Shown piece after piece: positions 1 to 15,282 of a DNA stretch of 64,000 nt. Numbering within the stretch: position 1 is the stretch's first letter; the number at the start of each line of letters is the position of its first letter. The notes beneath the pieces were generated by a model. It saw only the letters and a program-made list of their open reading frames with translations. It did no database searches and was not told the origin of the DNA. This DNA is from an uncultured Pelagibacteraceae bacterium (GTDB lineage Bacteria > Pseudomonadota > Alphaproteobacteria > Pelagibacterales > Pelagibacteraceae): NCBI GenBank assembly GCA_902528575.1, contig CABZSV010000002.1, positions 1 to 64,000 on the forward strand, written 5' to 3'. Both the position numbers and the translations under genes were made by a program.

Positions 1-1025
1 TTGGGGTTGCAAGCTCTGTACCAAATCCAGGCGATGCAAAACCTTTTAATCTTTTAGGAATACCAATACTAATAGTTAGAAACAAAGAGAATGAAGTAAA
101 AGTTTTTCATAATGTTTGTAGTCATAGAGGTTTCAAATTAGTTGATCAGGAATGTAAATTAAAAAATGTAATAAGATGCCCTTATCATTCTTGGTCCTAT
201 GATTTTAATGGAAAATTAACTGTTACTCCACATATAGGAGGACTAGGAAAACATGAGGTTGAAGAGTTTGATAAAAACAATAGTAACTTAAAAGAAATTA
301 AATCAAATATTTGGATGGATTTAATTTTTATCAATATAAATTCTAATGCAAAACCATTTGAAGATTTTATTAAACCTCTAGAGGATAGATGGTCTAAGTT
401 TATTTCTAAAAAAGATCAAAATTTAATAAGACATTCGGCTGATAACGGATATTTTAATATGACAGTAAATAGTAATTGGAAATTTGCAATTGAGAATTAT
501 TGTGAAAGTTATCATTTGCCATGGATACATCCAGAACTAAATAAAGTTTCAAATATTTCAGATCACTATCATATTGAAGATGAGAATTTAAATTTTTCAG
601 GACAAGGAAGTAATAAATATTCACAACAGTTTGATGGAAACATTAAATTTAAATGCTTTCCTAACTGGCCTACTGAACTTTATGAAAAATCTGAATATGT
701 ATCATTATATCCAAACGTAATGTTAGGAATACATATTGATCATTTCTATGCATTTTGGTTAGAGCCAATTTCTAACAATCAAACTAAAGAACATTTTGAA
801 TTATATTATGTTGGAGACGAAAGTGCCTCTAGTGATGAGTTTAAAGACATAAGAGAAAAAAATTTTGCATTTTGGCAAGAAGTCATGAATGAAGATGTAA
901 CTGCAATAGAAGGAATGCAAAACGGGCGAAATTCTCCAGCTTACAATGGTGGGAATTTTTCACCTGTAATGGATACTCCTACTTTGATGTTTCATAAGTG
1001 GGTTGCAACCAATTTAACTAAATGA
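1..1025 (+). CDS. Rieske [2Fe-2S] oxygenase large subunit (5' end cut by window)
   Basis: This is a partial gene. The reading frame is open from base 3, so the coding region enters from outside the window. The Rieske cluster motif is visible: Cys-x-His at 117-125 (CSH) and Cys-x2-His at 177-188 (CPYH). The catalytic mononuclear-iron motif follows near 502-530 (ENYCESYHLPWIH, with the two His ligands). The family (glycine betaine monooxygenase GbcA, carnitine oxygenase CntA and relatives) uses O2 and electrons from a separate reductase to hydroxylate or N-demethylate its substrate in the cytoplasm. The next gene, 11 bases downstream, is made of betaine and DMSP/glycine demethylase parts, which suggests a quaternary amine substrate. 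That is inference; the exact substrate cannot be read from the sequence. Confidence 0.88.
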   Translation, partial: GVASSVPNPGDAKPFNLLGIPILIVRNKENEVKVFHNVCSHRGFKLVDQECKLKNVIRCPYHSWSYDFNGKLTVTPHIGGLGKHEVEEFDKNNSNLKEIKSNIWMDLIFININSNAKPFEDFIKPLEDRWSKFISKKDQNLIRHSADNGYFNMTVNSNWKFAIENYCESYHLPWIHPELNKVSNISDHYHIEDENLNFSGQGSNKYSQQFDGNIKFKCFPNWPTELYEKSEYVSLYPNVMLGIHIDHFYAFWLEPISNNQTKEHFELYYVGDESASSDEFKDIREKNFAFWQEVMNEDVTAIEGMQNGRNSPAYNGGNFSPVMDTPTLMFHKWVATNLTK

Positions 1026-1036
1026 GAGGGTAAATT

Positions 1037-2503
1037 ATGAAAAAAGATCTTATTACAAGATTAAATGAAGGTCCAATAATGTGTGCAGAAGGCTATCTTT
1101 TTGCAATGGAAAGAAGGGGTTATCTTTCAGCAGGTCCATTTGTTCCAGAAGTTGTTATGGAACATCCTGAGGTAGTAACTCAGTTACATAGAGAATTTAT
1201 TAGAGCGGGATCTGATGTTGTTCAAGCATTTACTTATTACGGTCATAGAGAAAAGCTCAGAATAATTGGTAAAGAACATTTGTTAGAACCAATGCAAAAA
1301 GGTGCTCTTAAAATTGCAAAAGATGCTGCCGCTGAGTTTAAAGATTTAGATCTTATGGTTTGCGGAGACGTGGCTAATACAAATGTATTTGATCCAGGGG
1401 ATCCTAATACTCACAAACAATGTCAACAAATGTATGAAGAACAAGTAGCTTGGGCAAAAGGTCCTGATGCAGAAAAATTTACTGACTACGTTATAACTAG
1501 AGATGCAACAAAAATTTCTCCTATGAGAGCTAGGTATGTAATCTTATGTAATGCTTATGGAGGAGTTTTAAATGATCCAATTCTTTTAAGAATTTCAAAA
1601 GATGAATTTTGGTTTTCATTATCAGACTCTGATATTGGAATGTATTTACAAGGTGTAAATGCAGATGGAAGATTTAACTGTACAATTGAGGAAATTGATG
1701 CATGTCCTGTACAAATTCAAGGTCCTAAATCAAAAGCTTTAATGAAAGATCTTTGTGGAGACCAAGTTGATTTTGACAATATGCCTTTCTATGGATTAGC
1801 AGAAGCAACAATTGGTGGAAGAAGTTGTGTAATTTCTCAATCTGGTTTTTCAGGAGAAGCTGGTTATGAGATTTATTTAAGAAATGCAACTTTATATGCT
1901 GAAGATATGTGGAATGCAGTATTGGAAGCAGGAAAAAAACATAAGTTGATGGTTATTGCGCCTGCGCACCACAGAAGAATACAAGCTGGTATTCTTTCTT
2001 GGGGGCAAGACATGGATCAACAACATAATCCATTTCAATGTAATTTAGGTTATCAAGTTTCATTATCTGGTAAAGGTGAATGGAATAAAAAAGCTGACTA
2101 TGTTGGTAAAGCTGCTTTGGAGAAAATGGGAGCAGATATAAAAGCTGGAAAAAAACCATATAAACTTCAATTAGTTGGAATGGAGTTAGGTGGTAAACCT
2201 ATTGACGATTATGCACCTGACTTTTGGTTGGTATCACCAGAAAATGGTGGAGATCCAGTTGGATTTATTACTTCACCATGGTGGCATCCAGAAAAGAAAA
2301 CTAATATTGCTATGGGATACGTTCCATTTGATGGAACTTTAAACCCTAATGGATTTCCAAAAGGAAAAGTTGGAACTAAGTTTAAAGTTCATCTTCCAGA
2401 AAAATACTCAGATACTCCAGGAACACCTGTGGATGCTGTGGTTGTGGATATTCCATTTAAAGAATCTTTCAACGCAAATACAAGAGAAGTTGTAAAAGGC
2501 TAA
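1037..2503 (+). CDS. Chimeric protein: BHMT N-terminus fused to DmdA/GcvT-like C-terminus
   Basis: The 488-residue product has two unrelated halves. Residues 1 to about 141 match the start of betaine-homocysteine S-methyltransferase (RLNEG, RRGYLSAGPFVPE, HREFIRAGSDVVQAFTYYG). The match stops inside the TIM barrel, before the three zinc-binding cysteines of that family. From about residue 142 (GPDAEKFTDYVITRD) to the end it matches the DMSP demethylase/glycine cleavage T family (QGPKSKALM, SGFSGEAGYEIYL, ILSWGQDMDQQHNPF, TSPWWHPEKKTN). About 70 residues that normally precede this part of the fold are absent. The junction is near base 1457-1462. Both parent activities are probably impaired, unless the fusion is a genuine new enzyme. 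An in-frame deletion between adjacent bhmT and dmdA-like genes, or an assembly error, would give exactly this. AGAGGG at 1023-1028 can serve as ribosome binding site. Confidence 0.85.
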   Translation: MKKDLITRLNEGPIMCAEGYLFAMERRGYLSAGPFVPEVVMEHPEVVTQLHREFIRAGSDVVQAFTYYGHREKLRIIGKEHLLEPMQKGALKIAKDAAAEFKDLDLMVCGDVANTNVFDPGDPNTHKQCQQMYEEQVAWAKGPDAEKFTDYVITRDATKISPMRARYVILCNAYGGVLNDPILLRISKDEFWFSLSDSDIGMYLQGVNADGRFNCTIEEIDACPVQIQGPKSKALMKDLCGDQVDFDNMPFYGLAEATIGGRSCVISQSGFSGEAGYEIYLRNATLYAEDMWNAVLEAGKKHKLMVIAPAHHRRIQAGILSWGQDMDQQHNPFQCNLGYQVSLSGKGEWNKKADYVGKAALEKMGADIKAGKKPYKLQLVGMELGGKPIDDYAPDFWLVSPENGGDPVGFITSPWWHPEKKTNIAMGYVPFDGTLNPNGFPKGKVGTKFKVHLPEKYSDTPGTPVDAVVVDIPFKESFNANTREVVKG

Positions 2504-9170: not shown

Positions 9171-9917
9171 ATGATTGGAATTTTAGGTGGAATGGGAACT
9201 CAAGCTGGTCTTGATTTTTGTAACAAACTTGCTGTTCTAAATAGAGGAAAGATTGATCAAGAGTATCCGTTATTTTTACTTTATAACAAATCAAATATTC
9301 CAGGTAGACCCGAGTCCATAGGCTCTCAAACTAAAAATCTTTCTAACAAATCTACAAATAAAACAAGTAGAGAAAAATATAACAAAGTTTTAAAGAGTTT
9401 GCTCAAAGGTTGTAAGCTTCTAGAAAAAAATAAATGTAAATTTATAGTTATCCCTTGTAATACGGCTCATTATTGGTTTGATGATTTACAAAATAAAATC
9501 AATATTCCAATAATTAATATGCCAAAAGAAGTTTTCAAATTTACTAAAAAAAAATGTAAGAAAAACTCCAAAGTTGGTCTCTTGGCAACTGAAGGTACTC
9601 TTAAAACAGGAGTTTATAAAAAATTTTTTGAAAAAGATTATCAATTAATAGAACCATCTCAAAAAATACAAAAACGGTCAGTTAATAAAGCAATTAAATT
9701 AGTTAAAATGGGCAATGTAAAGGCAGCAGCAAAAACAATTAAACCTGCAATTGATTCATTAATTAAAATGAAGTGTAAAAAAATTATTTTAGGTTGTACA
9801 GAACTCCCAATTGCGATTTTTGCATTTAAATCATTTAAAAATGTTAAATCCTCAAAAGTTTTCTTAGATCCTAACTTAATTTTGGCTAATTCAGCTATGG
9901 TTAAGCATAAAAATTAG
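9171..9917 (+). CDS. Aspartate/glutamate racemase family protein
   Basis: This 248-residue protein has the two cysteine motifs of the cofactor-independent Asp/Glu racemase family: IPCNTAHYW at about residues 98-106 and LGCTELPIAIF at about residues 207-217. The glycine-rich start MIGILGGMGTQAGLDF is also typical. The two cysteines act as acid and base to invert the alpha carbon of an amino acid. The middle is unusually lysine-rich. The next gene starts three bases after its stop, so the two are probably co-transcribed. Whether the substrate is aspartate, glutamate or another amino acid cannot be told from the sequence. Confidence 0.87.
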   Translation: MIGILGGMGTQAGLDFCNKLAVLNRGKIDQEYPLFLLYNKSNIPGRPESIGSQTKNLSNKSTNKTSREKYNKVLKSLLKGCKLLEKNKCKFIVIPCNTAHYWFDDLQNKINIPIINMPKEVFKFTKKKCKKNSKVGLLATEGTLKTGVYKKFFEKDYQLIEPSQKIQKRSVNKAIKLVKMGNVKAAAKTIKPAIDSLIKMKCKKIILGCTELPIAIFAFKSFKNVKSSKVFLDPNLILANSAMVKHKN

Positions 9918-12289: not shown

Positions 12290-15282
12290 GATCTAACTCT
12301 TTCACCTTTTGGGTCTACGTAATGTGATGAAACTATCTCCACTGGTATTACTTTATTTTTAAGTGGTGACATTGCAAAAAGTTTTTGACCTATCATATTT
12401 TTTCCATCTTTCAAAATTGCTAAAGAAAAGGGATTATCATATTCAACACTCCAACATGATGCAGAGATATGGCCCAACTTTGGATTTGGCAATGGTGCCT
12501 TATCATCTTTAACTAAGTGAGAGCCTTCTGGTATACTTGTTTGTTTGTCTAATGGAACTACCCCCACTATTCTCTGTCTATCTTCAGCTATAAATGCAGA
12601 TCGTTGTAATGATCTTTTTCCAATAAAATCTTTCTTTTTACTAACAAGACCTTCTAAGGCGTTATCGAATGGAATTGTTCTACCATCAAGTTCTGATCCA
12701 GCAACATGTCCCATTTCAATTCTAAGAGTTGATAATGCTTCTGTTCCATATGGTTGAATATTAAATTTTTCACCAACTTCAATTATTTTTTCCCACATAA
12801 AATTTCCATAATCAGACTCAACATTTACTTCATAAGCAAGTTCGCCTGAAAACGAAATTCTAAATATTCTTGCTTTAACACCAAATAAATCTCCCTCCAT
12901 ATAGCCCATAAAAGGTAAGCCTTCATTTGATACATCAGAATTTGGAAATAATTTTTGTAATAAATCCCGAGATTTAGGTCCAGCAATAGCTGCTCCAGCC
13001 CATTGTTCTGTGGTTGAAACCACATTCACATTTAATTCAGGCCAAACTAATTGCAAATAATATTCTAAATGAGAAAGAACGTTTGCTGCTTGAGCTGTAG
13101 TAGTGGTCATATGATAATGATTTTCCGAAATTCTTGTGGTTGTTCCGTCATCCATAACAATTCCATCTTCTCTTAACATTACACCGTATCTTGCTTTGCC
13201 AACTGGTAGCTTCAACCATGCATTAGTATAAACTCTATTTAATAACTCTGCTGCATCAGGACCTTTCACATCAATTTTTCCTAAAGTTGTTACGTCACAA
13301 ACTCCAACATTTGTTCTTACATTTTTAGCCTCTCTTTTAGAGGCCTCAAATAAATTTTCATTTCCTCTTTTATAATAACGAGGTCTCAACCAAATACCTG
13401 CATCAACAAAAACTGCATTATTTTTTTCATGCCATGAATGCATTGGAGATTTTCTTGTTGGTTTTGAATGTTTTCCGACCTCTCTTCCTACTATTGCGCC
13501 AATGGAAACAGGAGTGTATGGGGGTCTAAAAGTTGTATGACCTACTGCAGGAACAACTTTATTTTCAATTTCGGATACTAATTGTAATCCATTTAAATTA
13601 CTTGTTTTTCCTTGATCTGTTGCCATTCCTAGAGTTGTATATCTTTTTACGTGTTCAATTGATCGATACCCTTCTCTTAAAGCTATTTCTATATCAGATA
13701 CTGCTACATCATTTTGGAAATCTAAAAACCTTTTATAATTTTTACCTTTCGGCAATGGAACGCACCAGAACTTATCATGTTGAGAAGATTTCTTTTCAAC
13801 AACATTTGGAATAGCTATCTCATTATCATTTTCAGTAATTTTTTTTGATAATTCACTTCCTGCTTTAAATGAAGTTTTTAATGTTTCATCAAGTGAAAAT
13901 ACTCCATTAGCTGCACCTAAAGTGATTTCATTTTGTTTTGATTGTCCTGGAACAAATGCATCAATTTCTTCTTTAAACTTTGTTTTATTTCCTGATTGTG
14001 AGGCTAAATGAATGGTTGGTGTCCAAAAACCTGAAACGCAAATACAATCACATTGTATACTTTCTATTTTACCAAGTTGTTTTTTATCTTCAGAAATAGT
14101 TGCTATATCTGCTGATTTTACTTTTTTATACCCTTGTGCAGCAACCACAACATATGAATTTTTAATGTTAATTCCTAAATTTTTTGCTTCATCAATTATT
14201 TCTGACTCAGCGTTTTTTCTTGAATCTAAAACAACTGGATCTACTCCATGTTTTTTAAATTCAATTGCTGTTTCGTATCCACTATCATTATTTGTAAATA
14301 CCAATGGTTTTCTTCCAACTAAAACACCATATACTTTTAAATATTCTTTAGCAGCTGAAGAAAGCATTACTCCTGGTGTATCATTATTTCCAAAAACTAT
14401 TGGTCTTTCAATTGATCCAGAGGAAATCAAAACTTCTTTTGCACGAATGTACCATAGTCTTTTATTAGGGTGATATTTTTTAGTTGATGGTAAATGATCA
14501 CTAACTTTTTCGGACATCACAAGCATGTTGTGATCGTAGTATCCAAAAATTTGAGATCTATTTTTTACAACAACATTTGGCATTGTTTTAAGTTCTGCAA
14601 TTATTCCCTCAGCCCAATCTTTTCCTGATTGATTACCAATATTGACATCACTAGTTAGTAAAGATCCACCAAATCTTGGTTTGTCTTCTGCTAAAATTAC
14701 TTTGGCTCCATTTTTTGCTGCTGCATATGCACCAGCTAATCCCGAAGGTCCTGAGCCTGCAATTAATAAATCACAATATTCGTATTTATGTTCATACCTT
14801 TCTTTATCATGTTTAGTTGAAGCTACACCTAAACCAGCTGCTTTTCTTATGAAAGGCTCATAAATTCGATACCAAAAACTTTTTGGCCACATAAAAGTTT
14901 TGTAATAAAAACCTGCTGGTAAAAAAATTTTCAAAAAATTATTGATTGCACCTATATCAAAATTGACACTTGGCCAACAATTAACACTTTTTGCTTCTAA
15001 ACCTTCAAATAATTCCTGCTCTGTTGCTTTAATATTTGGTTCTGTTTCACCATTTCTATAAAGTTGAACAACTGCATAAGGTTCATCCACACCCGCTCCA
15101 AAGAAACCTCTGGGTCTGTGATATTTAAAACTTCTTCCCACTAAATGAACTCCATTTGCCAATAAAGCTGAAGCTAATGTATCACCCTCATATCCAAAGT
15201 AATTTTTTCCATTAAATTTAAAAGATAATTTTTTATCTCTATTTATTAACCCACCATTTTCAATTCTAAAAGCTTGAGTCAT
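12286..15282 (-). CDS. soxA: Sarcosine oxidase-type alpha subunit (SoxA/MgdC)
   Basis: The 998-residue large subunit has the full family architecture. An N-terminal ferredoxin-like domain (about residues 20-100; [26 protein letters not shown]) precedes an FAD/NAD-binding domain with GSGPSG at 176-181. The C-terminal third is a GcvT-like tetrahydrofolate domain ([52 protein letters not shown]). The enzyme oxidises the N-methyl group of sarcosine, or of N-methylglutamate in the Mgd form, and passes the formaldehyde unit to tetrahydrofolate. The start overlaps the soxD stop by one base. Given gmaS- and mgs-type genes 20 kb away, the Mgd assignment deserves equal weight. Confidence 0.93.

What the first reader, a model, noticed from the sequence alone, without database searches (positions are those of the whole stretch)
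1037..2503. In-frame chimera of betaine-homocysteine methyltransferase and a DmdA/GcvT-like protein
The 488-residue frame changes family abruptly at about residue 141/142 (bases 1457-1462). Before it, the sequence is clean BHMT but ends before that enzyme's zinc cysteines. After it, the sequence is clean DmdA/GcvT but lacks about 70 N-terminal residues. Both halves are conserved-looking and the frame is unbroken. It is either a recent in-frame deletion between neighbouring bhmT and dmdA-like genes, an assembly join, or a new bifunctional or repurposed protein. Two methyl-transfer families with related substrates (betaine, DMSP, dimethylglycine) being joined is notable.
Basis: partly seen in the sequence, partly recalled or inferred. 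Interest (0 to 1): 0.8.

Follow-up and report, generated by a model that had tools for sequence, protein, structure and literature searches.

The report
Amplification-chimera join, not a fusion enzyme
The 488-residue "fusion enzyme" in this marine SAR11 sequence joins pieces of two genes that lie whole, a few thousand bases apart and on opposite strands in close relatives, and the join was most likely made in the test tube when the DNA was amplified before sequencing, so it is probably not a real protein.

Summary
In detail: the open 488-codon frame (1037-2503) changes family at 1457-1460. The new-protein reading fails. In near relatives bhmT (346 aa) and the DmdA/GcvT-like aminomethyltransferase gene (452 aa) are intact and divergent, with about 4.9 kb between the two join points, so the window holds an inverted join with an intervening deletion, not a deletion between tandem genes. 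The arms share 4 bases (AAAG). Window base 1 is base 1 of its contig, so the left arm is a 1.46-kb tail on a contig end. No listed match in 249 other same-genus genomes, nor among the 120 listed protein hits, spans the join. The intervening segment and both gene remainders were not found in the own, 75%-complete assembly. Two further inverted joins private to this assembly lie about 0.5 and 5 kb from contig ends. Contig spacing and minimum length fit a published single-cell pipeline, which implies amplified DNA. This is the published signature of a multiple-displacement-amplification (MDA) chimera. An in-frame result has a 1-in-3 chance. Reads were not available, so a real inversion is not formally excluded. 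Not a real feature; about 95% confident.

The parts
1..1460 (+). Left arm of the chimeric join: a contig-end tail that in relatives lies on the opposite strand, beyond an intervening segment
   Evidence: Window base 1 is base 1 of contig C2; arm is 99.2% identical to the minus strand of L048 2545-1086; maps + on G082 while the rest of the window maps -
3..1025 (+). 3' part of a Rieske-type oxygenase-like gene, open at the contig start (395 aa when whole, in L048)
   Evidence: Open frame without start; whole gene next to bhmT in L048; the name is from its sequence and recall
1037..1459 (+). bhmT codons 1-141 of 346
   Evidence: Pfam S-methyl_trans, PDB BHMT matches; comparison with the whole gene of L048
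1457..1460 (.). Four bases (AAAG) shared by both parent sequences at the join
   Evidence: HSP ends and the printed alignment
1457..2503 (+). DmdA/GcvT-like aminomethyltransferase gene from codon 105/106 of 452 to its stop; its 5' part is missing
   Evidence: Pfam GCV_T matched from profile position 53 of 255; comparison with L048

Best explanation
The 488-codon frame joins the 5' part of bhmT to the 3' part of an aminomethyltransferase gene that lies divergently in relatives, and the join was most likely made in vitro by template switching of a phi29-type polymerase during multiple displacement amplification of one SAR11 cell's DNA. Shown: inverted geometry, 4 shared bases, contig-end position, absence of spanning matches elsewhere, two more private inverted joins in the same assembly. 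Inferred: a displaced 3' end re-annealed through the 4 bases to a nearby single strand about 4.9 kb away and was extended there; the chimeric molecule was sequenced; the true neighbouring DNA was poorly amplified, so the assembler followed the chimera for 1.46 kb until the contig ended. Because the two genes point away from each other, an inverted join inside both puts them on one strand, and one in three such joins is in frame by chance. The living cell would carry the two ordinary genes and no fusion protein.
For: Inverted parents: 45 of 46 loci with bhmT have it full length on the strand opposite to the aminomethyltransferase gene; on the complete relative G082 the two window arms map in opposite directions. 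Four-base overlap. Contig end. No spanning row in 149 relatives, 80 loci, 120 listed protein hits, 249 same-genus genomes. Two more private inverted joins near contig ends; for one, contig C46 starts next to the join with the normal continuation. Contig gaps of 200 bases and a shortest contig of 2,077 match a single-cell pipeline that trims 100 bases per end and keeps contigs over 2,000 (PMC5519541, passages). Published MDA chimeras: 406 of 475 inverted, 337 of the 475 inverted and under 10 kb apart, 93.5% of those with 2 or more complementary bases, about one per 22 kb (PMC1855051, passages).
Against: No reads were available. That this genome is a single-cell (MDA) one is inferred, not stated by any search. 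The frame is intact and neither arm is decayed, which a very recent real event would also give. One locus, L103, has a bhmT 3' part on the same strand as the aminomethyltransferase gene. The absence of the normal locus from the own assembly is weak evidence at 75% completeness, and one search scored 40 of 140 first-look candidates.
Confidence: 0.95

Rival explanations
1. A real inversion of the roughly 4.9-kb segment in this cell's chromosome, with breakpoints inside bhmT and the aminomethyltransferase gene, leaving a fused open frame at one end.
For: The geometry of the join is also that of one end of a simple inversion; both arms are undecayed.
Against: The other end of such an inversion was not found in the own genome; no listed match in other genomes spans the join; it would break two conserved genes, lie by chance 1.46 kb from a contig end, and share an assembly with two more private inverted joins.
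Confidence: 0.03
2. An assembler misjoin: the program joined two separate sequences without any molecule holding the join.
For: The join lies near a contig end in a fragmented assembly of 57 contigs.
Against: The parents share 4 bases at the join and the stretch printed has no N, so a k-mer assembler would need a read that already holds the join (general knowledge of such assemblers).
Confidence: 0.01
3. A real in-frame deletion between bhmT and the aminomethyltransferase gene in an ancestor that had both on one strand.
For: L103 has a bhmT 3' part 5.3 kb upstream of and on the same strand as the aminomethyltransferase gene.
Against: L103's bhmT is only 75.5% identical to that of L048, whereas the window's left arm is 99.2% identical to L048, where the genes are divergent. 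The 17 listed left-arm loci above 92% DNA identity all have the left arm on the minus strand of a locus oriented with the aminomethyltransferase gene on plus.
Confidence: 0.005

Closest known systems
Inverted MDA chimeras with intervening deletion (Lasken and Stockwell 2007, PMC1855051; abstract and passages seen)
   Same: Inverted segments, under 10 kb apart, joined at a few shared bases, intervening DNA lost
   Different: Those were counted in reads of an E. coli cell against a known genome; here the join is seen only in an assembly, and the amplification method is inferred
SAR11 betaine-homocysteine methyltransferase (bhmT; PMC3160333 and PMC12478193, passages seen)
   Same: Residues 1-141 are an ordinary SAR11 BHMT start
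   Different: Lacks residues 142-346
SAR11 GcvT/DmdA-like aminomethyltransferases (PMC3160333, passages seen)
   Same: Residues 142-488 are an ordinary member, 452 aa when whole
   Different: Lacks the first 105 residues; scores 182 bits against the curated DmdA cut-off of 410, so that it is DmdA itself is not shown

Membership tests
MDA chimera, inverted type | The two joined segments are inverted relative to each other in the source genome | tested here: met
   (against relatives, since the cell's own normal locus is not in the assembly)
MDA chimera, inverted type | Segments less than 10 kb apart with the intervening DNA lost | tested here: met
   4,933 bases in L048, 4,940 in L038 and G082 between join points; segment not found in the own genome
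MDA chimera, inverted type | A few complementary bases at the join | tested here: met
   AAAG, 1457-1460
MDA chimera, inverted type | The DNA was amplified by MDA | tested here: inconclusive
   Inferred from 200-base contig gaps, shortest contig 2,077 and the kind of the nearest records; no record of the own genome was seen
MDA chimera, inverted type | Normal and chimeric molecules both present in the reads | not testable with these tools
   No reads held; for the C11 join of the same assembly both paths are present as contigs
Betaine-homocysteine methyltransferase | Whole barrel with the later NC and CC motifs (zinc cysteines, recalled) | tested here: not met
   Only 141 of 346 residues; the motifs lie after the join in L048
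GcvT/DmdA-type aminomethyltransferase | Complete folate-binding domain | tested here: not met
   Pfam GCV_T matched over profile positions 53-253 of 255
DMSP demethylase DmdA | Score above the curated NCBIfam cut-off | tested here: not met
   182.1 against 410 bits for the fusion; the whole 452-aa protein was not scanned

The most novel reading that the evidence does not exclude
A one-cell chromosomal inversion fused bhmT to an aminomethyltransferase gene in frame, giving a new methyl-transfer protein expressed from the bhmT promoter.
Probability: 0.01. Interest if true: 0.5.

Novelty: not a real feature. Interest (0 to 1): 0.05.

Why it matters
As biology it does not matter. As a caution it is useful: chimeric tails at contig ends of single-cell assemblies can make clean in-frame 'fusion enzymes'. 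A simple check exposes them: parent genes inverted in relatives, few shared bases, a contig end nearby, and a join private to one assembly.

Tried and rejected
Own-genome searches for another S-methyl_trans gene or for the normal locus found only the window's own pieces; weak evidence at 75% completeness, and one search scored 40 of 140 candidates. A structure prediction of the fusion was not run, since it would not say whether the join exists. The idea that an open frame argues for a real protein was rejected: with divergent parents one inverted join in three is in frame. A narrow literature search (betaine-homocysteine methyltransferase, fusion, aminomethyltransferase) gave 0 papers. bhmT is not always at this place: of 80 loci, 34 show no bhmT over 60% identity in the stretch held, and 17 of those hold at least 4.7 kb upstream; L098 has other genes there. 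A search for overlapping contig ends in the own assembly (40 bases or more at 97%) listed none.

Full report
What is there. The frame 1037-2503 is open and 488 codons long. It is BHMT up to residue 141 and a GcvT/DmdA-like aminomethyltransferase after it. DNA alignment to relatives puts the switch at 1457-1460, four bases (AAAG) that both parents share. The aminomethyltransferase lacks 105 residues rather than about 70.

What the parents look like. In L048, whose DNA is 99.2% identical to the left arm, the order is bhmT (-, 346 aa), a Rieske-type gene (-, 395 aa), then on the + strand a 344-aa binding-protein-like gene, a 295-aa permease-like gene, a 242-aa gene and the 452-aa aminomethyltransferase gene (the names are from sequence and recall). 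One search kept the best 80 of 583 related stretches. In 79 of these 80 loci the aminomethyltransferase gene is unbroken across the join point; the 80th, L080, is matched from residue 22 at locus base 3, cut by the end of the stretch. A bhmT over 60% identical is found in 46 of 80: 45 are full length and on the opposite strand, and one, L103, is a stretch-cut 3' part on the same strand. In the other 34 no such bhmT is in the stretch held; 17 of these hold at least 4.7 kb upstream. The two gene starts are 4.19-4.21 kb apart in 40 of the 45 and 3.05 kb in 5.

So the join is inverted. On the single-contig genome G082 the window's bases 1-1460 map + to 1343438-1344897 and bases 1457-64000 map - to 1339957-1270350. 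Between the two join points lie 4,933 bases in L048 and 4,940 in L038 and G082. A deletion between genes on one strand cannot give this from such an ancestor.

It is private, as far as searched. Of 149 relatives (150 genomes less the own one) 147 have a match to some part of the protein and no listed row spans the join; the list is cut, but a spanning match should rank at its top. With 301 bases across the join, 200 of 249 other same-genus genomes match and no listed row spans: rows end by 167 or start at 146 or later (list cut likewise). In the protein collection the 120 listed of 7,973 hits cover at most 75% of the query (7,998 candidates were scored).

It sits at a contig end. Window base 1 is base 1 of contig C2, which has 87,989 bases. 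A search of the whole own genome with L038 1-6060 finds only the window's own two arms; 40 of 140 first-look candidates were scored. A profile search for S-methyl_trans finds only this copy. In the stretches surveyed, nothing else of this assembly maps to G082 between 1339957 and 1356336.

The same assembly has more such joins. I compared 68 stretches (838,421 bases, some overlapping, from all 57 contigs; about 172 kb of the 980 kb not surveyed) with G082; 10 contigs, C48-C57, gave no block. Two further joins between nearby, inverted segments appear: C24 at about 9,720 of 10,175, with segments about 1.1-1.5 kb apart, and C11 about 5 kb from its end, with segments about 25 kb apart. Of 89 other same-genus genomes 79 match the C24 stretch and 84 the C11 stretch, and no listed row spans either join (lists cut). 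For C11, contig C46 begins 34 reference bases beyond the join and runs on as G082 does, so this assembly seems to hold both a rearranged and a normal path there. The C11 join is wider than the under-10-kb class. Other breaks of collinearity with G082 (in C3, C10, C11 and C13) are between distant places and were not followed; they may be real differences.

The assembly looks like a single-cell one. Sixty-six contig ends could be placed on G082. Of 10 facing pairs less than 2 kb apart, 9 have gaps of 194-220 bases, 7 of them exactly 200, and one has 1,576. No contig is shorter than 2,077. The WGA-X paper says that 100 bases were trimmed from each contig end and only contigs over 2,000 kept after SPAdes in single-cell mode, and that read-level chimera frequency did not differ from standard MDA (PMC5519541, passages). 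Of the 80 records, 77 bear isolate names of the form AG- or AH- with plate positions, as single-cell genomes do (meaning recalled); some of these titles also carry the word MAG. That the window's genome is of this kind is inferred.

The mechanism. Lasken and Stockwell (PMC1855051, abstract and passages) mapped 475 MDA chimeras from one E. coli cell: 406 inverted, 337 of these under 10 kb apart, complementary bases (2 or more) in 93.5% of those, and about one chimera per 22 kb. The window's join has each of these features. An assembler misjoin is unlikely with 4 shared bases. A true inversion cannot be excluded without reads, but it would need a private event that breaks two conserved genes and falls by chance near a contig end, in an assembly with two more private inverted joins.

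Function. None is proposed for the fusion: it has 141 of 346 BHMT residues and lacks the start of the folate-binding domain. In SAR11 BHMT is predicted to take the first methyl group of glycine betaine to make methionine, and several GcvT-like aminomethyltransferases have unknown substrates (PMC3160333 and PMC12478193, passages). The living cell most likely has both ordinary genes.

Verdict. An amplification chimera, not a real gene fusion; confidence 0.95.

Noticed in passing
L143 (G000 contig C24) about 9719-9727: A second inverted join about 450 bases from a contig end; the halves map 1.1-1.5 kb apart on opposite strands of G082, and no listed row in 89 other same-genus genomes spans it.
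   Followed up: partly
L259 (G000 contig C11, 10900-30899) about 14806-14827: A third inverted join about 5 kb from a contig end; segments about 25 kb apart on G082. Contig C46 (L245) starts next to it and carries the collinear continuation.
   Followed up: partly
L132 (G000 contig C13) 2400-4362: A 2-kb block in opposite orientation from a place about 800 kb away on G082 sits inside an otherwise collinear contig; real insertion or artefact not decided.
   Followed up: no
L041, L044, L047, L049 and others, Rieske gene next to bhmT: The Rieske-type gene falls into two kinds at one position: about 95-99% or about 61-63% identical to the window's, while bhmT and the aminomethyltransferase gene beside it stay near 90-99%, which suggests allele replacement.
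   Followed up: no
L103 1-5714: A different layout upstream of the aminomethyltransferase gene: a 75% identical bhmT 3' part and an 801-aa dimethylglycine-dehydrogenase-like gene (name recalled) on the same strand.
   Followed up: partly
Contig ends of G000 mapped on G082: Abutting contigs are separated by 200 bases in 7 of 10 facing pairs, a fingerprint of trimming 100 bases from each end that can reveal how an unnamed assembly was made.
   Followed up: yes
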